Positions 16,296 through 25,412 of a stretch of DNA of 48,302 nucleotides are shown piece by piece; the first letter of the stretch is position 1, and each line of letters opens with the position of its first letter. Under the pieces are notes generated by a model, which made no database searches, was not told where the DNA came from, and saw nothing but the letters and a program-made list of their open reading frames with translations. Source of the DNA: an uncultured Bacteroides sp. (GTDB lineage: Bacteria > Bacteroidota > Bacteroidia > Bacteroidales > Bacteroidaceae); assembly GCA_900546355.1 (NCBI GenBank), contig URCM01000010.1, positions 1-48,302 on the forward strand, given 5' to 3'. The position numbers were made by a program, and so were the translations under genes.

Positions 16296-16325
16296 TTTGT
16301 TTTTTAAATAAAAGTATTACATTTG
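16296..16325 (+). promoter_or_regulatory. Promoter of the aromatic amino acid operon
   Basis: TTTG (16296-16299), an 18-base spacer, and TACATTTG (16318-16325) form a full Bacteroides promoter. Transcription should begin about 16331-16333, giving a leader of about 210 bases before pheA that contains the leader peptide and attenuator. Confidence 0.75.
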
Positions 16326-16357: not shown

Positions 16358-16450
16358 ATGATGAAAACAGTTGCTACATACTTCTTCTTTTTCTTTTATT
16401 ACTTTTACTTTAGCAATGAAGTGAAGCGGGAGTTTGTATGTGTACGTTAA
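16358..16450 (+). CDS. Phe/Tyr-rich leader peptide of the pheA operon
   Basis: A 30-codon open frame from tandem ATGs at 16358 and 16361 to TAA at 16448, about 26 bases after the predicted transcription start. Codons 8-18 are eleven consecutive aromatic codons, in order Y, five F, two Y, F, Y, F (7 Phe, 4 Tyr), followed by SNEVKREFVCVR. The run lies just before a segment (16424-16440, GAAGCGGGAGTTTGTAT in part) that can pair with the terminator's left arm. This is the arrangement of classical amino-acid attenuators such as pheL. Its role is to sense charged tRNA-Phe and tRNA-Tyr through ribosome stalling (inference from architecture). The peptide itself probably has no other function. Confidence 0.85.
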   Translation: MMKTVATYFFFFFYYFYFSNEVKREFVCVR

Positions 16451-16523
16451 ACCAAGACAAACAAGAAAAACAAAACCTATATGATACGAAATCCCGCTTC
16501 CAGACGAAAGCGGGATTTTTTTA
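16421..16523 (+). promoter_or_regulatory. Transcription attenuator with mutually exclusive structures
   Basis: The terminator is AAATCCCGCTT (16489-16499) paired with AAGCGGGATTT (16508-16518), an 11-bp perfect stem with an 8-base loop, followed by more T residues to 16522. The antiterminator is formed by leader-ORF bases GAAGCGGGAGTTTGTAT (16423-16439), which pair with ATACGAAATCCCGCTTC (16484-16500) at 16 of 17 positions, counting one G-U. The two share the left terminator arm and cannot coexist. A ribosome stalled in the aromatic run (16379-16411) leaves 16423-16439 free and permits read-through. A ribosome that reaches the stop at 16448 covers it and allows termination. Confidence 0.85.
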
Positions 16524-16541
16524 TTTAAAAGCACATAGAAA

Positions 16542-17384
16542 ATGAAAAGAATAGCCATACAAGGAGTCTTGGGGTCGTATCACGACATCGCGGCCCATAA
16601 ATACTTTAAGGATGAAAACATCGAACTGATTTGCTGCAACACCTTCGAAGAAGTGTTTGCCCAAATGAAGCAAGACGAAAACGTCCTCGGGGTGGTAGCC
16701 ATTGAAAACACCATTGCGGGAAGCCTGCTTCATAACTATGAACTGCTGCGCGACAGCGGTGCCACCATCATCGGCGAACACAAGTTGCGCATCAGCCATA
16801 GCATCATGTGCCTGCCCGGTGAAGACTGGGGCACACTGACCGAAGTCAATTCACATCCCGTAGCGCTGGCGCAATGCCGAGACTTCCTGCAACACCATCC
16901 GCAGCTGAAAGTAGTAGAAACCGAAGATACCGCGGCCAGCGCGCGCGACATCAAGGAGAAAGGACTGAAGGGTCATGCCGCCATCTGCTCGAAATATGCA
17001 GCCGAACTCTATGGCATGAAAATCCTGCAAGAAGGCATCGAGACGAACAAACACAACTTCACCCGTTTCCTCGTGGTGTGCGACCCTTGGATAGCCGACG
17101 ACTTGCGGGTGCGCCCGAAACTGAACAAGTCGAGTATCGTCTTCTCCCTTCCCCACAACGAAGGAAGCCTCTCACAAGTGCTCTCCATCTTTTCGTTCTA
17201 TAAAATCAACCTGACCAAGATACAGTCGTTGCCCATCATCGGACGTGAATGGGAATACATGTTCTACGTCGACGTGATGTTCAATGACTACCTCAGATAC
17301 AAACAATCCATTGATGCCGTAACCCCGCTTACCAAAGCACTTAAAATATTAGGAGAATATGCAGAAGGAGAATCAACCTTATAA
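16542..17384 (+). CDS. pheA: Prephenate dehydratase
   Basis: It converts prephenate to phenylpyruvate, the committed step to phenylalanine. The 280-residue protein is the monofunctional form, with the catalytic domain (1-180) including the FTRFLVV motif (Thr-Arg-Phe) and a C-terminal ACT domain (about 195-270). In the ACT domain the usual Phe-binding motifs are changed: the GALV-type loop reads GSLS and the ESRP motif reads QSLP. Feedback by Phe may therefore differ from the Escherichia coli enzyme (inference; I believe the QSLP form is common in Bacteroidetes). It is the first structural gene after the attenuator, and the next gene starts 26 bases before its stop. Confidence 0.96.
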   Translation: MKRIAIQGVLGSYHDIAAHKYFKDENIELICCNTFEEVFAQMKQDENVLGVVAIENTIAGSLLHNYELLRDSGATIIGEHKLRISHSIMCLPGEDWGTLTEVNSHPVALAQCRDFLQHHPQLKVVETEDTAASARDIKEKGLKGHAAICSKYAAELYGMKILQEGIETNKHNFTRFLVVCDPWIADDLRVRPKLNKSSIVFSLPHNEGSLSQVLSIFSFYKINLTKIQSLPIIGREWEYMFYVDVMFNDYLRYKQSIDAVTPLTKALKILGEYAEGESTL

Positions 17385-18552
17385 CATCCAGCCCGCCGAC
17401 CGGCTGGCGAATGTGAGCGAATATTACTTCAGCCGCAAGCTGAAAGAAGTGGCACGCATGAATGCCGAAGGGAAAGACGTCATCAGCCTGGGCATCGGAA
17501 GCCCCGACATGCCGCCTTCGGAAGAAACCATCAACGTATTGTGCGAGAATGCCAAGAAACCCGACGCACACGGCTATCAACCCACCGTAGGCATCCCTGA
17601 ACTGCGCCGTGCCATGGCAGACTGGTACAAACGCTGGTATAATGTAGACCTGAATCCGGATACCGAAATCCAGCCGCTTATCGGCTCAAAGGAAGGCATC
17701 CTGCACGTCACGCTGGCTCTGGTGAATCCGGGCGATCAGGTATTGGTGCCCAATCCGGGCTATCCCACGTATACTTCCCTGAACAAAATATTGGGAAGCG
17801 AAATCGTCAATTACAACTTACGGGAAGACAATCACTGGCAACCTGACTTCGACGAACTGGAACGGATGGACCTGAGCCGCGTGAAGATTATGTGGACCAA
17901 TTATCCGAACATGCCCACCGGAGCCAATGCCACCTTGGAACTGTATCAAAAGCTGGTAGACTTCGCACGCCGGCACAACATCGTGATAGTAAACGACAAC
18001 CCGTACAGCTTCATCCTGAACCGCAAGCCCATCAGTATTCTGAACATTCCCGGAGCGAAAGAATGCTGCATCGAATTCAATTCGATGAGCAAAAGCCACA
18101 ACATGCCGGGCTGGCGTGTGGGCATGATTGCTACGAATGCCACCTTTATCCAATGGATATTGAAGATAAAGAGCAACATCGACTCGGGCACGTTCCGCCC
18201 CCTGCAACTTGCAGCCGCACAAGCCTACCGGAACAGTGCGGAATGGCACGAAGAGGCAAACTTCAACGTATATAGCCGCCGCCGGAAGCTGGCAGAGGAA
18301 ATCATGCACGCCTTGGGCTGCACGTTCGACCCCGAACAGGTAGGCATGTTCCTGTGGGGGAAAATCCCCGACACGTATGCCGATGTGGAAGACCTGACCG
18401 AAAAGGTATTACACGAAGCCCGCGTATTCATCACGCCCGGATTCATCTTCGGAAGCAACGGGAAACGGTATATCCGTATCTCGCTCTGTGCCAAAGACGA
18501 TAAACTGGCGGAAGCCCTGAAACGTATCAAAGCGATAATAGTGAATAATTAA
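17359..18552 (+). CDS. PLP-dependent class I/II aminotransferase (aromatic branch)
   Basis: 397 residues, fold type I aminotransferase. The cofactor lysine is in SMSKSHNMPGWRVGM (around residue 243). SLGIGSPDMPPSEETI, NPGYPTYTS and WTNYPNMPTGA are the standard substrate and phosphate-site segments. It overlaps pheA by 26 bases, implying translational coupling, and lies between prephenate dehydratase and DAHP synthase. Transamination of phenylpyruvate and 4-hydroxyphenylpyruvate (or of prephenate) to Phe and Tyr is therefore the probable role. By sequence it also resembles LL-diaminopimelate or aspartate aminotransferases, so the substrate is inferred. Its last codons (VNN, stop) lie inside a 20-base repeat that recurs at 19757. 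Confidence 0.9.
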   Translation: MQKENQPYNIQPADRLANVSEYYFSRKLKEVARMNAEGKDVISLGIGSPDMPPSEETINVLCENAKKPDAHGYQPTVGIPELRRAMADWYKRWYNVDLNPDTEIQPLIGSKEGILHVTLALVNPGDQVLVPNPGYPTYTSLNKILGSEIVNYNLREDNHWQPDFDELERMDLSRVKIMWTNYPNMPTGANATLELYQKLVDFARRHNIVIVNDNPYSFILNRKPISILNIPGAKECCIEFNSMSKSHNMPGWRVGMIATNATFIQWILKIKSNIDSGTFRPLQLAAAQAYRNSAEWHEEANFNVYSRRRKLAEEIMHALGCTFDPEQVGMFLWGKIPDTYADVEDLTEKVLHEARVFITPGFIFGSNGKRYIRISLCAKDDKLAEALKRIKAIIVNN

Positions 18553-18665
18553 TAATGAATAGTTAATAGTGAATAGTTAATAGTGAAAGATGAATAACGG
18601 CAAATGAGTATGTCCACCATTATTAACGATTCATTATTAACTATTAACTGACAAAACCGAACTTA
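18541..18665 (+). repeat. Intra-operon repeat and hairpin between aminotransferase and DAHP synthase genes
   Basis: GTGAATAATTAATAATGAAT (18541-18560) is repeated exactly at 19757-19776. A 14-base unit GAATAGTTAATAGT occurs in tandem at 18557-18570 and 18571-18584. ACTATTAACT at 18640-18649 is complementary to AGTTAATAGT in each unit, giving two alternative hairpins. The stretch has no ORF. Confidence 0.6.
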
Positions 18666-18678
18666 AAAACTTAAATAT

Positions 18679-19746
18679 ATGGAACTCGAATTACAACCCA
18701 TCGAACTGGAAGGCGTATCGAAGGAACGCCCCATCGTCATTGCAGGCCCCTGCAGTGCGGAGACCGAAGAACAGGTGATGTCAACCGCCACCCAACTGGC
18801 CAACAAAGGAATCAAGATATTCCGTGCAGGCATCTGGAAACCACGCACCAAACCCGGAGGCTTTGAAGGCATCGGCGTAGAAGGACTGGCATGGCTGAAG
18901 AACGTAAAGAAGGAAACCGGCATGTATGTAGCGACCGAAGTGGCTACCGCCAAACATGTGTACGAATGCCTGAAGGCAGGCATCGATATCCTTTGGATAG
19001 GCGCGCGCACCTCGGCAAACCCCTTTGCCGTACAGGAAATAGCCGACGCACTGAAAGGCGTGGATATCCCGGTATTGGTAAAGAACCCGGTCAATCCTGA
19101 CCTGGAATTATGGATAGGCGCACTGGAACGCATCAACGCCGCCGGACTGAAACGTTTGGCTGCCATCCACCGCGGATTCTCTTCGTACGACAAGAAAATC
19201 TACCGCAACTTGCCTCAATGGCACATCCCCATCGAATTGCGCCGCCGCATCCCGTCTCTGCCCATCCTTTGCGACCCCAGCCACATCGGAGGCAAACGCG
19301 AACTTATCGCCCCGCTCTGCCAACAAGCCATGGACTTAGGTTTCGACGGGCTTATCGTAGAATCACATTGCAATCCGGACAGTGCCTGGAGCGATGCCTC
19401 CCAACAAGTAACGCCCGATGTGCTGGATTACATCCTCAACCTGCTGGTCATCCGCAAGGAGCACCAGACCACCGAAAGCCTGCACGAATTGCGCCAGCAG
19501 ATAGACGAGTGTGACAATACCCTGATGGAAATCCTCGCCAAGCGTATGCGTATCTGCCGCGAAATCGGTACGTTCAAGAAAGAACATAACATGACCGTGC
19601 TCCAAACCGGACGCTACAACGAAATACTCGACAAGCGCGGTGCCCAGGGAAGCCTCTGCGGCATGGATCCAGAATTCGTAAAGACCGTATTCGAAGCCAT
19701 CCACGAAGAAAGTGTGCGCCAACAGTTGGAAATCATTAACAAATAA
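18679..19746 (+). CDS. Bifunctional DAHP synthase (type I-beta) / chorismate mutase (AroQ), C-terminal fusion
   Basis: 355 residues. Residues 1-262 are a I-beta DAHP synthase, the entry step from phosphoenolpyruvate and erythrose 4-phosphate, with IAGPCSAET, FRAGIWKPRTKPGGFEG, PVLVKNP, and CDPSHIGGKRE carrying metal and substrate residues. Residues about 265-355 are an all-helical AroQ chorismate mutase (LHELRQQIDECDNTLMEILA, KRMRICREIGTFKKEHNMT). The mutase at the C-terminus is the arrangement described for the Prevotella nigrescens enzyme, where prephenate controls the synthase activity. One protein therefore supplies both the first step and the chorismate-to-prephenate branch, and the flanking pheA and tyrA genes use its product. 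Confidence 0.95.
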   Translation: MELELQPIELEGVSKERPIVIAGPCSAETEEQVMSTATQLANKGIKIFRAGIWKPRTKPGGFEGIGVEGLAWLKNVKKETGMYVATEVATAKHVYECLKAGIDILWIGARTSANPFAVQEIADALKGVDIPVLVKNPVNPDLELWIGALERINAAGLKRLAAIHRGFSSYDKKIYRNLPQWHIPIELRRRIPSLPILCDPSHIGGKRELIAPLCQQAMDLGFDGLIVESHCNPDSAWSDASQQVTPDVLDYILNLLVIRKEHQTTESLHELRQQIDECDNTLMEILAKRMRICREIGTFKKEHNMTVLQTGRYNEILDKRGAQGSLCGMDPEFVKTVFEAIHEESVRQQLEIINK

Positions 19747-19754
19747 TGTATTTC

Positions 19755-19818
19755 AGTGAATAATTAATAATGAATCATGAAAAACGAGCACATCATTAGA
19801 CACTATTAATTATTCACT
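19755..19818 (+). repeat. Hairpin between DAHP synthase and tyrA genes
   Basis: AGTGAATAATTAAT (19755-19768) is perfectly complementary to ATTAATTATTCACT (19805-19818) with a 36-base loop. It shares a 20-base sequence with the region after the aminotransferase gene. There is no T-tract, so it may modulate RNA stability or partial termination (inference). Confidence 0.6.
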
Positions 19819-19839
19819 ATTAATTATTAATTGAAAAAG

Positions 19840-20613
19840 ATGAAAATTCTGATATTGGGAGCCGGCAAAATGGGTTCCTTCTTTACCGATGTATTGAGTT
19901 TTGAGCATGAAGTGGCAGTATTCGAAACCGACCCGAAGCGGTTGCGCTTCATGTATAATTGCTACCGGTTTACGAAAGAAGAGGAAATCGAGGCATTTCG
20001 TCCCGAACTGGTCATCAATGCCGTAACGGTGAAATACACTATCCAAGCCTTCAACCAGGTCATGCCGCTCCTGCCCAAGGATTGCATCGTGAGCGATATC
20101 GCTTCGGTGAAAACCGACCTGAAAGCATTTTATGAGCAGTGTGGATTCCGCTATGTATCCACTCACCCGATGTTCGGACCTACATTCGCCAACCTGGACC
20201 AGCTCAGCTCGGAGAATGCCATCATCATCAAAGAAGGCGACCACTTGGGCAAGATATTCTTCAAAGACCTGTACCAACGTTTGGGCTTGAATATCTTCGA
20301 ATATACATTTGAAGAGCACGATGAAACCATGGCTTACTCACTTTCCATCCCGTTTGTTTCTACTTTTGCCTTTGCGGCGGTGATGAAGCACCAGGATGCG
20401 CCGGGCACTACCTTCAAACGCCACATGGCTATCGCCAAAGGTGTATTGAGCGAAGACGATTACCTCTTGCAGGAAATCCTTTTCAACCCCCGCACACCTG
20501 CCCATGTGGAAGGTATCCGCACCGAGCTGAACGAGCTACTGGACATCATCCAGAAAAAAGACGCCACCCGGATGCGTGCCTATCTGGAGAAAATTCGAGG
20601 ACATATAAAATAG
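19840..20613 (+). CDS. tyrA: Prephenate dehydrogenase
   Basis: It oxidatively decarboxylates prephenate to 4-hydroxyphenylpyruvate for tyrosine. 257 residues from the ATG at 19840; a TTG nine bases upstream is in frame but less likely. The N-terminal Rossmann loop is MKILILGAGKMGSFF, and STHPMFGPTFANL around residue 107 is the family substrate motif. It is short and lacks a C-terminal ACT domain or mutase domain, so feedback control must come from transcription or the DAHP synthase. It is the last gene of the operon and is followed by a terminator. Confidence 0.94.
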   Translation: MKILILGAGKMGSFFTDVLSFEHEVAVFETDPKRLRFMYNCYRFTKEEEIEAFRPELVINAVTVKYTIQAFNQVMPLLPKDCIVSDIASVKTDLKAFYEQCGFRYVSTHPMFGPTFANLDQLSSENAIIIKEGDHLGKIFFKDLYQRLGLNIFEYTFEEHDETMAYSLSIPFVSTFAFAAVMKHQDAPGTTFKRHMAIAKGVLSEDDYLLQEILFNPRTPAHVEGIRTELNELLDIIQKKDATRMRAYLEKIRGHIK

Positions 20614-20629
20614 CAATATGTCCCCATAA

Positions 20630-20681
20630 AAAGAATGTGCCAATGTATCTGCGATTTTTATTCCACATTAGCACATTCTTT
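20630..20681 (+). terminator. Terminator of the aromatic operon
   Basis: AAAGAATGTGCCAATGT (20630-20646) pairs with ACATTAGCACATTCTTT (20665-20681) with one mismatch in 17, followed by ATTCAT. It lies 17 bases after the tyrA stop. Confidence 0.65.
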
Positions 20682-20691
20682 ATTCATCATA

Positions 20692-20733
20692 TCAGAAGAT
20701 ATAACCCACACCGATGGTGAACGTCATGTTTTT
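20692..20733 (-). pseudogene. Possible C-terminal relic of an outer-membrane beta-barrel gene
   Basis: On the minus strand the last 13 codons before a TGA read KNMTFTIGVGYIF. A final amphipathic strand ending in aromatic Phe is the insertion signal of outer-membrane barrels. The frame is closed 11 codons further upstream by a stop and runs into the GHL10 gene, so nothing else of the gene remains. Short length makes coincidence possible. Confidence 0.3.
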
Positions 20734-20758
20734 AGGAGTGTGCCTGCATTTTCCAGGA

Positions 20759-22261
20759 CTATAGTTTCACTTTTTTACTCACCGCCTTCGATTCGTTCTG
20801 TAAGCGGTCGAGGGCAGTCACTACATAGCGGTACTTTGTCTTCCCGTCCTCATACGGAAGCTTATAGAAGCAATCGCGCGTAATGGCTACAATATGCGAA
20901 GGGTCTTTCAAGTTGACATCCTCCTTATTTCCAAACTGATAGACCACGTATTGCACCGCCTCATCCATCACATCCTTGGCTTTCGGAGCGGTCCAGAACA
21001 AGATGTATCCGTCTTCAGTCCATACAGATTTCACCTTGCGCACCTTCTTCGGTGCCTTATCATCCATAAACGGATAACGGGGCTGAAGGGCAGGATACTT
21101 GTGGTAAACTTTCTCTAACATGTCACAATAACTTCCCGGATTATCCACCACCGCGGCTGCATACCACTGACAACTACCCTCTATCGTGGGAAGCGAGCGT
21201 TGCAACTGATATTTTGCCGGCATCTGATGCTGGGCGGAACGCTTCGGGTCGGCTTTCGAGACCGTACGCATCACGTCCTGACCGATATACAACGGGCGTG
21301 CCGACGAATGCTTCGCCCACCAGCGCACCAGTGTGTCATAGTCTGCCGCCGGATGTCCGATTTCCCAATACACCTGCGGGATGTTATAATCCACCCAACC
21401 GTTGTTCACCCACAACAGCACATCGGCATACAGGTCATCGTAGTTCTGAAGCCCGTTCGTATTGCTTCCGTTCGGGTCTGATTTCTTGTTGCGGTAAATA
21501 CCGAAAGGCGACACGCCAAACTTCACCCACGGCTTGCACTGGCGCACCGTCTCGTGAATCTCCTTTATCAATACGTTCACATTATCGCGCCTCCAGTCTG
21601 CCTTGTTCGTAAAGCCCCTTCCGTATGCCGCAAAGCTGACGTTATCCGGAAAGTCCATGCCGTTCACCGGATAGGGATAAAAATAATCATCCATGTGGAT
21701 GGCGTCTATGTCGTAACGCGAGACAATGTCGCGCACAATGCGGCAAATGTACTTGCGCGACTCGGGCTGTCCGGGGTCGAAATACAACTGGCCGGCATAA
21801 CGAACGAAGAGATTCGGGTATTTATTGTAAGGATGAAGCGGAGAAAGCACCGTCGTGCCCTTGGTCTGTGCCCGGTACGGATTAATCCACGCATGAAGCT
21901 CCATGCCCCGCTTGTGGCACTCGTCTATCATGAATTGCAAAGGGTCCCACACCGGAGCGGGTGCCTGGCCCTGTACACCGGTCAGGAAGCGGCTCCACGG
22001 TTCGTACGACGAACGGTAAAGCGCATCGCACTCCGCCCGCACCTGAAAGATGATGGCGTTGATGCCCGCCTTTTCCAGCTTGTCAAGCTGGCTGATGAGC
22101 ATCGCCTGCATCTGCCGGGGAGGCATTCCCTGAAATTGTCCGTTCACACATTGTATCCACGCCCCGCGGAATTCCCGCTTCGGGTATACGGTCTGCGCCC
22201 CTAACGCCTGCCATACGGACAGGAAAAGCAAGCAAGCCGCCAAAATCATTTTCGCTTTCAT
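20759..22261 (-). CDS. GHL10/DUF187 family secreted glycosyl hydrolase-like protein
   Basis: 500 residues from the ATG at 22261; the frame reaches 22336 through sequence upstream of the promoter box. Signal peptide residues 1-22 (ILAACLLFLSVWQALGAQ). The TIM-barrel domain (about 27-330) is of the YngK/DUF187 type: REFRGAWIQCVNGQF, INAIIFQVRAECDALY, MELHAWINPYRAQ and DAIHMDDYFYPYPV, with acidic residues in the positions expected for catalysis. A C-terminal fibronectin-like domain follows (about 400-500). Some relatives cleave peptidoglycan stem-free glycans or exopolysaccharide, but the substrate here is unknown. It is monocistronic, convergent with the aromatic operon. Confidence 0.88.
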   Translation of the reverse strand: MKAKMILAACLLFLSVWQALGAQTVYPKREFRGAWIQCVNGQFQGMPPRQMQAMLISQLDKLEKAGINAIIFQVRAECDALYRSSYEPWSRFLTGVQGQAPAPVWDPLQFMIDECHKRGMELHAWINPYRAQTKGTTVLSPLHPYNKYPNLFVRYAGQLYFDPGQPESRKYICRIVRDIVSRYDIDAIHMDDYFYPYPVNGMDFPDNVSFAAYGRGFTNKADWRRDNVNVLIKEIHETVRQCKPWVKFGVSPFGIYRNKKSDPNGSNTNGLQNYDDLYADVLLWVNNGWVDYNIPQVYWEIGHPAADYDTLVRWWAKHSSARPLYIGQDVMRTVSKADPKRSAQHQMPAKYQLQRSLPTIEGSCQWYAAAVVDNPGSYCDMLEKVYHKYPALQPRYPFMDDKAPKKVRKVKSVWTEDGYILFWTAPKAKDVMDEAVQYVVYQFGNKEDVNLKDPSHIVAITRDCFYKLPYEDGKTKYRYVVTALDRLQNESKAVSKKVKL

Positions 22262-22640: not shown

Positions 22641-25412
22641 ATGTCTGAAACCAACTATATATCTATCAAAGGAGCACGGGTGAACAACCTGAAAAACATC
22701 GATGTGAACATCCCACGGAACAAGCTGGTGGTCATCACCGGACTGTCCGGTTCGGGCAAGTCGTCGCTGGCGTTCGATACGCTTTATGCCGAAGGACAAC
22801 GGCGCTATGTGGAAAGCCTTTCTTCGTACGCCCGCCAGTTCCTGGGACGCATGAGCAAGCCCGAATGCGACTTCATCAAGGGTATCCCGCCCGCCATTGC
22901 CATCGAGCAGAAAGTAATCAGCCGCAACCCGCGCTCTACCGTAGGCACCTCGACCGAAATATACGAATACCTGCGCCTGCTCTTCGCCCGCGTGGGGAAA
23001 ACCTATTCGCCCGTAAGCGGGCAACTGGTCAAGAAGGACAGCCCCGAAGACATCGTGGCGTGCATGCTTTCGTATCCAAAAGGCACGCGATATACGGTGC
23101 TCACCCCCATCCTGCCCCGTGAAGGGCACGACGTAGCCCAGCAAATAGAAACCGACATGAAGGAAGGTTTCACCCGACTGGAAGTCAACGGGAAAACAAT
23201 ACGCATCGAAGAATACCAGTACAACCCGAAAGACACGGTGTACCTGCTGGTAGATCGCATGAGCGCAGACGACTCGAAAGACGCGATAAGCCGGCTCACC
23301 GACTCGGCGGAAACCGCCATGTATGAAGGCGACGGTGCCTGCCTCCTCCGTTTTTACCAACCCGACGGCTCGACCAGCCTGTACCGGTTCAGCACGAAGT
23401 TTGAAGCGGACGGCATCAAATTCGAAGAGCCGAGCGACCAGATGTTCTCGTTCAACTCGCCGCTGGGAGCCTGCCCCACGTGCGAAGGCTTCGGCAAAAT
23501 CATCGGTATCGACGAGCGGCTGGTCGTGCCGAACCGTTCGCTGAGCGTATATGACGGTGCCGTGATGTGCTGGAGAGGCGAAAAGATGGGCGAATGGCTG
23601 CAAGCCTTCCTGCGCGAAGCCCCTGCCCACGACTTTCCCATCTTCACGCCTTATTACGAGCTGACCCAGGCGCAAAAGGATTACCTGTGGCACGGCCCGC
23701 GCGACAAGGTATGCATCGACTCATTCTTCAAGATGCTGGAAGAAAACCAATACAAGATACAATACCGGGTGATGCTGGCACGCTACCGCGGCAAGACTAC
23801 CTGCCCCGAATGCCACGGAAGCCGCCTGAAGAAAGAAGCCCTTTACGTAAAGGTGGGAGAACGCAACATCGCCGAACTAGTGGATATGCCCGTAACCCGG
23901 CTGAAGGAATTCTTCCGCACCCTGAAGCTGAACGACCACGACGCGCAAATAGCCAAACGGTTGCTGAACGAAATAAACAACCGGCTGGACTTCCTGATAG
24001 ACGTAGGACTGGGATACCTCACCCTGAACCGCCTGAGCAACTCGCTATCGGGCGGGGAAAGCCAACGCATCAACCTCGCCACTTCCCTGGGAAGCAGCCT
24101 GGTAGGCTCTTTGTACATATTGGACGAACCCAGCATCGGGCTGCATAGCCGCGACACCGACCGACTCATCAAAGTGTTGCGCCAATTGCAACAGTTAGGC
24201 AACACGGTGGTAGTGGTGGAACACGATGAAGAGATTATCCGTGCCGCCGACTACATCATCGACATCGGTCCCAAAGCCGGACGGTTGGGAGGGGAAATCG
24301 TGTACGAAGGCGACATGGAAGACCTGCGTCCCGGCAGCAAGAGCTACACCGTGAAATACCTGCTGGGAGAGGAAACCATCCCCCTGCCCGCCCGTCATCG
24401 CGCATGGAACAACTACATCGAAATAAAGGGGGCGCGCGAAAACAACCTGAAAGGCATCGACGTGCGTTTCCCCCTCAACGTGATGACGGTCGTGACCGGA
24501 GTAAGCGGCTCGGGCAAACTGGTGCGCGACATTTTCTATAAAGCCCTGAAGCGTGAGTATTGCGAAAGCAGCGAGCGGCCGGGTGAATATGTATCGCTGG
24601 ACGGAGACATCCGGACCATGAACGACATCGAGTTTGTAGACCAGAACCCGATAGGCAAATCGTCGCGCAGCAACCCTGTGACCTACGTGAAAGCATACGA
24701 TGAAATACGGAAGCTATTCGCCGAGCAACCTCTTGCCAAACAGATGGGATATACGGCTGGATACTTCTCTTTCAACACCGAAGGCGGACGTTGCGAGGAA
24801 TGTAAGGGCGAAGGCACCGTGACCGTAGAAATGCAATTCATGGCCGACCTGGTGCTGGAATGTGAGTCGTGCCACGGGAAACGCTTCAAGAAAGACACCC
24901 TGGAAGTGACGTATGAAGGCAAGAACATCTACGATGTGCTGGAAATGACGGTCAACCAAGCCATCGAGTTCTTCGACGCCCACGGACAGAAAAAGATTGT
25001 AAAGAAGCTCCAGCCCTTGCAGGAAGTAGGATTGGGCTACATCAAACTGGGGCAATCTTCGTCTACCCTGTCGGGAGGAGAAAACCAGCGTGTGAAACTT
25101 GCCTATTTCTTAAGCATGGAGAAAGCACAACCCACGATATTCGTCTTCGATGAGCCTACCACCGGGTTGCACTTTCACGACATCAAGAAACTGCTGGAAG
25201 CCTTCGATGCACTGATAGAGCGAGGACATACGGTAGTCATCATCGAGCACAACATGGATGTCATCAAGTGTGCCGATTATATCATCGACCTGGGTCCGGA
25301 AGGTGGCGAACAGGGAGGAAACATCGTGGTATGTGGCACTCCCGAAGAAGTGGCGCAATGCGCGGCTTCGTATACCGGACAGTTCCTGAAAGAGAAAATA
25401 CATAAAGAGTAA
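22641..25412 (+). CDS. uvrA: Excinuclease ABC subunit A, second Walker A altered
   Basis: The damage-recognition ATPase of nucleotide excision repair, 923 residues. First nucleotide-binding domain: [16 protein letters not shown] (about 34-49), LSGGESQRI and [12 protein letters not shown]. Zinc modules [14 protein letters not shown] and [16 protein letters not shown] are intact, as are the second-domain [12 protein letters not shown] and [12 protein letters not shown]. The second Walker A, however, reads [14 protein letters not shown] (Lys626 codon at 24516-24518). The family has GSGKS(S/T)LV here, so two residues, including the Mg-coordinating Ser/Thr, are missing, as if six bases were deleted in frame. 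Everything else is full length. This could be a natural variant, a partially impaired paralogue (Bacteroides often carry two uvrA genes) or a sequence error. Confidence 0.94.

What the first reader, a model, noticed from the sequence alone, without database searches (positions are those of the whole stretch)
16358..16523. Unannotated Phe/Tyr leader-peptide attenuator controls the pheA-aminotransferase-DAHP synthase-tyrA operon
Seen: a promoter, a 30-codon ORF with eleven consecutive Phe/Tyr codons (16379-16411), an 11-bp intrinsic terminator before pheA, and an alternative 17-base pairing (16423-16439 with 16484-16500) that destroys it. Known: this is the logic of pheL/trpL attenuation in enterobacteria. 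New or unusual: it is in a Bacteroidetes genome, and it mixes codons for both end products, so scarcity of either Phe or Tyr would open an operon containing both branches and the pathway entry enzyme.
Basis: partly seen in the sequence, partly recalled or inferred. Interest (0 to 1): 0.85.

Follow-up and report, generated by a model that had tools for sequence, protein, structure and literature searches.

The report
Phe/Tyr leader-peptide attenuator in Bacteroidota
Just ahead of the genes that make phenylalanine and tyrosine, this gut-type bacterium carries a tiny gene packed with codons for those two amino acids and an RNA switch that should turn the pathway on when they run short; many sampled relatives in its phylum have the same arrangement, whose design is long known from E. 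coli.

Summary
A 29-30 codon ORF (ATG 16358 or 16361, stop 16448-16450) has eleven consecutive Phe/Tyr codons (16379-16411). A 12-bp intrinsic terminator (16488-16519) precedes pheA. 16423-16439 pairs with 16484-16500 (16 of 17 positions), excluding the terminator. It is more than chance: 77 of 80 related loci carry one such run, just upstream of pheA. In a phylum/order sample 83 of 118 pheA upstream regions have such an ORF, against 5 of 2360 shuffles. Antiterminator arms fit their own partners better than swapped ones and start about 12 nt after the last aromatic codon. The gene order aminotransferase, DAHP synthase-chorismate mutase, tyrA is kept in 71 of 71 scorable close relatives. Best reading: ribosome-mediated transcription attenuation, trpL/pheL logic, not yet tested by experiment. 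Leader attenuation in Bacteroidota is not new (Bacteroid-trp; leader clues and a separate mention of a structured pheA element in flavobacteria). That Tyr shortage opens the operon is untested; the published Phe-Tyr-Phe leader AroR is said to answer to Phe only. Extra: 29 of 84 distant leaders also contain Trp codons.

The parts
16296..16325 (+). Bacteroides-type promoter: TTTG (16296-16299) and TAnnTTTG (16318-16325)
   Evidence: read; consensus recalled; TAnnTTTG within 80 nt of the leader ATG in 74 of 76 close leaders
16358..16450 (+). leader ORF (M)MKTVATYFFFFFYYFYFSNEVKREFVCVR, stop 16448-16450; homologues start at the ATG aligned with 16361
16379..16411 (+). eleven consecutive Phe/Tyr control codons; the last four, TAC TTT TAC TTT, are almost invariant at base level in close relatives; segment 1
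16423..16439 (+). segment 2, 5' arm of antiterminator (inside the ORF)
16484..16500 (+). segment 3, 3' arm of antiterminator, overlapping the 5' arm of the terminator
16488..16526 (+). intrinsic terminator: 12-bp stem 16488-16519 (segments 3 and 4) and T-rich tail
   Evidence: fold; (T-rich tail in relatives)
16542..17384 (+). pheA, prephenate dehydratase
   Evidence: PF00800
17359..18552 (+). class I/II aminotransferase; its ORF overlaps the 3' end of pheA
   Evidence: PF00155; coordinates
18679..19746 (+). DAHP synthase fused to chorismate mutase (pathway entry)
   Evidence: PF00793 and PF01817
19831..20613 (+). tyrA, prephenate dehydrogenase (ORF listed from TTG 19831; in-frame ATG at 19840 may be the real start)
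   Evidence: PF02153; ATG position

Best explanation
A ribosome-mediated transcription attenuator of the trpL/pheL type. Transcription starts a few bases after 16325 and a ribosome begins the leader ORF. With charged tRNA-Phe and tRNA-Tyr plentiful, the ribosome runs through the eleven aromatic codons into segment 2 (16423-16439), so segment 3 is free to pair with segment 4 and RNA polymerase terminates near 16520-16526. If charged tRNA-Phe (and perhaps tRNA-Tyr) is short, the ribosome stalls in the run. Segment 2 begins about 12 nt beyond the last aromatic codon, near the leading edge of the stalled ribosome, so it stays free, pairs with segment 3, destroys the terminator, and the four genes are transcribed. 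Without translation, the aromatic codons (segment 1) can pair with segment 2 and restore termination. Shown by sequence and comparison: ORF, codon run, terminator, mutually exclusive pairing, matching arms, spacing, gene order. Inferred: translation, stalling, read-through, relative Phe and Tyr sensitivity, role of 1:2, co-transcription.
For: Aromatic run in 77 of 80 close loci (leaders) and a qualifying ORF in 83 of 118 pheA upstream regions of a phylum/order sample (P. vulgatus included), 5 of 2360 shuffles; Phe/Tyr is the top of 190 residue pairs, 83 against 22 for the next. Swap test over 78 distant loci: native 2:3 mean -16.4, swapped -10.4 kcal/mol, 0 of 10,000 permutations as good; the native partner is in the best tenth in 53 of 78. 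Native 2:3 beats 99% of shuffles in 66 of 66 close and 62 of 78 distant loci; helix start 8-14 nt after the run in 65 of 66 and 64 of 78, against 16-19% of shuffles. Close leaders come in two forms, with the stop codon after segment 2 or just before it, yet the GC(G/A)GG core lies 14 nt after the run in 52 of 53 long and 22 of 24 short ones, so the RNA rather than the peptide tail is conserved. Gene order kept in 71 of 71 scorable close loci. Of 12 distant loci picked for a Trp-containing leader, 12 have DAHP synthase downstream; of 8 picked as leaderless, 7 show no DAHP synthase match in the fetched stretch and the eighth (L232), which has one, proves to have a GTG-started leader.
Against: No transcript, ribosome or starvation data. 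In the close set the 2:3 core is invariant and cannot covary, and the outer pairs of the window's helix are poorly kept: the last three are unpaired in 21, 38 and 29 of 48 sequences. The 1:2 hairpin gets weak support: synonymous resampling p<=0.05 in 8 of 77 and 8 of 84 loci; the local hairpin at the end of the run passes a swap test in distant loci (0 of 2000) but marginally in close ones (p 0.03), and in close ones native codons are among the best 10% in only 2 of 77, in distant ones in 14 of 84. L077 keeps the run and hairpins but has no in-frame ATG; L040 has an interrupted run; L068 has no leader. 34 of 118 distant loci are without a qualifying leader's list (L143, with too little upstream sequence, among them), though some have weaker aromatic ORFs. 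L045 and L049 have weak U-tracts. The swap test does not correct for kinship. In the long form a ribosome parked at the stop codon would cover only the 3' half of segment 2 by my arithmetic.
Confidence: 0.92

Rival explanations
1. Same attenuator, but it senses Phe only; the Tyr codons are passengers, kept because TAC/TAT fits the pyrimidine-rich run that may pair with segment 2.
For: AroR of C. glutamicum, a Phe-Tyr-Phe leader upstream of a DAHP synthase gene, is said to respond to Phe limitation and not to Tyr (PMC11802643, passage). Phe residues outnumber Tyr in both leader sets, 510 to 367 and 473 to 313.
Against: Tyr is present in 77 of 77 close and 83 of 84 distant leaders and makes up half of many of the eight-codon runs; tyrA is in the gene row.
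Confidence: 0.3
2. The hairpin is a constitutive partial terminator or a small-RNA 3' end, and the ORF encodes a functional aromatic microprotein.
For: Nothing here measures the transcript; the terminator scan alone is not above chance.
Against: The peptide tail is dispensable (24 of 77 close leaders stop 2-3 codons after the run) while the core of segment 2 stays in place; segments 2 and 3 match locus by locus; leader presence goes with operon content in the 20 loci examined.
Confidence: 0.04
3. The switch acts mainly on translation of pheA, or through an arrest peptide, rather than on transcription termination.
For: A few relatives have a weak U-tract (L045, L049).
Against: At least 5 T occur in the 10 nt after the GGG(A/G) of the 3' arm in 77 of 77 close leaders (that stretch includes part of the stem); in the window the stem ends 22 nt before the pheA ATG; in the short form only 2-3 residues follow the run, which leaves little room for a specific arrest sequence at the end.
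Confidence: 0.05

Closest known systems
pheL attenuator of E. coli pheA (Rfam RF01859 Phe_leader)
   Same: short Phe-rich leader ORF, antiterminator and terminator, controls prephenate dehydratase (pheL details recalled; named in a passage of PMC11802643)
   Different: the window scores 22.9 bits against a gathering score of 55; here Phe and Tyr codons are interleaved and the operon covers both branches plus DAHP synthase
AroR leader upstream of aroF in Corynebacterium glutamicum (passages of PMC11802643 and PMC4046766)
   Same: mixed Phe/Tyr leader upstream of a DAHP synthase gene, attenuation
   Different: only Phe-Tyr-Phe, other phylum; Tyr reported to have no effect there
Bacteroid-trp RNA (Rfam RF01692)
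   Same: leader-peptide-like element in Bacteroidota; the P. vulgatus match (80.5 bits) lies elsewhere in that genome and contains a short ORF with YWW followed by a T-tailed hairpin (by eye)
   Different: Trp codons; no Rfam match in the window at gathering score
Structured 5' element upstream of pheA in Flavobacteriaceae (PMC9723704, section 19 read)
   Same: same gene, same phylum, no Rfam hit; leader-peptide attenuation clues at amino-acid operons are given in the same section; probably the same system (inference)
   Different: the text seen gives no sequence, codon content or mechanism for pheA; its supplement could not be read

Membership tests
ribosome-mediated transcription attenuators (trpL/pheL class) | short leader ORF rich in codons for the operon's end products | tested here: met
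   eleven Phe/Tyr codons in one run
ribosome-mediated transcription attenuators (trpL/pheL class) | intrinsic terminator between leader ORF and first gene | tested here: met
ribosome-mediated transcription attenuators (trpL/pheL class) | mutually exclusive antiterminator whose 5' arm lies just past the control codons | tested here: met
   (by sequence and predicted energy only)
ribosome-mediated transcription attenuators (trpL/pheL class) | protector hairpin 1:2 | tested here: inconclusive
   predicted but weak or mixed in resampling and swap tests
ribosome-mediated transcription attenuators (trpL/pheL class) | operon makes the sensed amino acids | tested here: met
   (gene content; co-transcription not shown)
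ribosome-mediated transcription attenuators (trpL/pheL class) | leader is translated and read-through rises when the charged tRNA is short | not testable with these tools
   needs transcript, ribosome and starvation experiments
Rfam RF01859 Phe_leader | score at or above gathering cut-off | tested here: not met
   22.9 against 55 bits
Rfam RF01692 Bacteroid-trp | score at or above gathering cut-off | tested here: not met
   no match in the window at gathering cut-off; no Trp codon in the leader

The most novel reading that the evidence does not exclude
An old, phylum-wide aromatic OR-switch in Bacteroidota: one leader peptide that stalls on Phe, Tyr and, in many lineages, Trp codons controls the operon holding DAHP synthase, so shortage of any aromatic amino acid would open the shikimate entry step; its persistence would also imply transcription-translation coupling in a phylum that makes little use of Shine-Dalgarno sites (recalled).
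Probability: 0.4. Interest if true: 0.68.

Novelty: new variant of a known kind. Interest (0 to 1): 0.52.

Why it matters
It points to how gut Bacteroidota control phenylalanine and tyrosine synthesis and gives a genetic handle on whether translation is coupled to transcription in this phylum. A switch with mixed codons asks a clean question: can one leader read two or three amino acids? It also offers material for a new RNA family that would flag short ORFs likely to be missed in annotation.

Tried and rejected
Rejected: membership of Rfam Phe_leader and Bacteroid-trp. Covariation inside the close set was uninformative in the invariant core, so a swap test over distant loci was used. The 1:2 hairpin was examined and left as inconclusive. 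Counting Phe/Tyr codon runs in the P. vulgatus genome is not informative by itself: 14 matches against 13 for the reversed control pattern; only the context of each site tells. A His-leader search there (five CAY codons) gave nine matches, some overlapping; three of the four loci fetched (L214-L216) were scanned on the + strand for a short ORF and gave none. Names of the distant genomes were not obtained.

Full report
What is there. One search shows an ORF from ATG 16358 (or 16361) to TAA 16448-16450, with eleven consecutive Phe/Tyr codons at 16379-16411. The terminator stem is 16488-16519. The alternative pairing 16423-16439 with 16484-16500 has 16 pairs and one G.A mismatch; the best duplex of the two regions is predicted at -20.6 kcal/mol against -16.2 for the terminator. 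Because 16484-16500 overlaps the terminator's 5' arm, the two cannot coexist. Upstream lies a Bacteroides-type promoter (consensus recalled), TTTG 16296-16299 and TAnnTTTG 16318-16325; an exact TAnnTTTG recurs within 80 nt of the leader ATG in 74 of 76 close leaders.

Is it more than chance? Scanned on both strands for seven or more consecutive Phe/Tyr codons, 77 of the 80 have exactly one run, just upstream of pheA. L040 (run interrupted by Asn), L064 (contig begins 37 nt before pheA) and L068 (no leader) have none. L077 has the run but no in-frame ATG. In the P. vulgatus genome the codon pattern is no commoner than its reversed control (14 and 13 matches); I examined seven of its eight distinct sites, and only the one upstream of pheA is an ATG ORF of under 60 codons (29 codons).

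Wider sample. Searches centred on P. vulgatus covered 198 genomes of the phylum (172 with pheA) and 149 of the order (61 with pheA, P. vulgatus counted). I took 59 further loci from the phylum list, the best-scoring ones, and 59 from the order list (one partial match left out), plus P. vulgatus itself: 119 loci. The phylum part thus leans to close homologues, and some loci are near-duplicates. L143 was dropped for short upstream sequence. Of the other 118, 83 have a 10-45 codon ATG ORF with at least 7 Phe/Tyr in 10 residues within 350 nt of pheA, against 5 of 2360 dinucleotide shuffles; among 190 residue pairs Phe/Tyr ranks first with 83, the next is Phe/Ser with 22. With Trp counted too and P. 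vulgatus left out, leaders are found in 28 of 34 loci at 50% or more pheA identity, 50 of 63 at 40-50% and 6 of 20 below 40%. Requiring ATG makes these lower bounds (L232).

Structure under selection. I then used 161 leaders: 77 close (window and 76 loci; L017, identical to L016, and L077 left out) and 84 distant. Of these, 149 pass my terminator finder and 144 also an energy cut of -6 kcal/mol (66 close, 78 distant). Ten close loci fail the finder; seven of these (L038, L044, L045, L048-L051) show the hairpin with a T-run below my threshold. For the 78 distant loci I paired each segment 3 with every segment 2: native partners average -16.4, swapped ones -10.4 kcal/mol, with 0 of 10,000 permutations as good; the native partner is in the best tenth in 53 of 78. 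Kinship among the loci is not corrected for. Against shuffled segment 2, the native pairing is better than 99% in 66 of 66 close and 62 of 78 distant loci, and the helix begins 8-14 nt after the last aromatic codon in 65 of 66 and 64 of 78, against 16-19% in shuffles. That spacing is what a ribosome stalled in the run would need to leave segment 2 open (inference). In an alignment of 48 close sequences the 2:3 core never varies, so it cannot covary; two-sided changes occur at two pairs, and the last three outer pairs of the window's helix are unpaired in 21, 38 and 29 of 48.

Two leader forms. 53 of 77 close leaders have 9-15 codons between the last aromatic codon and the stop, so that segment 2 is translated at least in part; 24 of 77 stop 2-3 codons after the run, just before it. 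The core GC(G/A)GG lies 14 nt after the run in 52 of 53 long and 22 of 24 short leaders, and at 13 or 15 nt in the rest. So the tail is conserved as RNA, not as peptide.

Segment 1. A 1:2 hairpin is predicted (median -20.2 and -22.5 kcal/mol in alignments of 48 and 25). The last four codons, TAC TTT TAC TTT, are nearly invariant at base level in close relatives. Direct tests are weak or mixed: synonymous resampling reaches p<=0.05 in 8 of 77 and 8 of 84 loci; the local hairpin passes a swap test in distant loci (0 of 2000) and marginally in close ones (p 0.03), while its native codons are among the best 10% in only 2 of 77 close and 14 of 84 distant loci. I treat the protector hairpin as possible but unproven. 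By my own arithmetic a ribosome resting at the stop codon of the long form would cover only the 3' half of segment 2; the hairpin at the end of the run may then matter.

Operon. Pfam names the four genes prephenate dehydratase, class I/II aminotransferase, DAHP synthase with chorismate mutase, and prephenate dehydrogenase. No terminator-like site was found on the + strand from 17300 to 20900. The order is kept in 71 of 71 close loci with at least 4.3 kb downstream; 7 were excluded. In 20 distant loci chosen by me, the 12 picked for a Trp-containing leader all have a DAHP synthase match downstream; 9 of the 12 have the aminotransferase and 1 of 12 a recognisable tyrA match. Of 8 picked as leaderless, 7 show no DAHP synthase match in the stretch fetched; L232 does, and turned out to have a GTG-started leader. 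The leader thus appears to go with the operon that makes the sensed amino acids.

Trp. 29 of 84 distant leaders contain Trp, in 10 of 84 as the last codon of the cluster; 3 of 77 close ones do. DAHP synthase feeds all three aromatic amino acids, so a Trp codon there makes sense, but this is inference.

Known and new. Ribosome-mediated attenuation is textbook (recalled). [quoted passage not shown] Bacteroid-trp appears in a 2010 motif table (row seen in PMC2864571) and is described in PMC6414381 as a similarly structured RNA upstream of the trp operon (passage). PMC9723704 (section 19 read) reports leader-peptide clues at amino-acid operons in F. psychrophilum and, separately, an Rfam-unmatched element upstream of pheA shared by other Flavobacteriaceae. 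PMC7366714 (passages) mentions short ORFs reminiscent of leader peptides in B. thetaiotaomicron; the passages do not name pheA. AroR shows that a mixed Phe/Tyr leader exists elsewhere and that Tyr may be ineffective (PMC11802643, passage). So this is a new variant of a known kind: its long mixed run, two-branch operon and wide spread were not found described in my ten searches, whose reach is limited as stated under Tried and rejected.

Noticed in passing
L096, L102, L103, L111, L119, L190 and other distant loci: Leader peptides upstream of pheA that also contain Trp codons (29 of 84 distant leaders), suggesting a sensor for all three aromatic amino acids.
   Followed up: partly
L077:337-402: Aromatic run and hairpins kept but no in-frame ATG upstream of the run; possible loss of the leader start, another start codon, or an assembly fault.
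   Followed up: no
L045, L049: Terminator hairpin conserved but U-tract weak; termination may be poor there.
   Followed up: no
window 18553-18678 and 19747-19830: AT-rich repeated and inverted motifs (TTAATAGTGAATAG and the like) in two intergenic gaps of the operon.
   Followed up: no
window 22641-25412: UvrA-like ORF (by eye) whose second nucleotide-binding loop reads GSGKL instead of the usual GSGKS/T (translation; motif recalled); variant, paralogue or sequencing fault.
   Followed up: no
L232: Distant locus with a GTG-started aromatic leader (VITNIKYNFYYYFYFYYIKAGRVVFAKI), so counts that require ATG are lower bounds.
   Followed up: no
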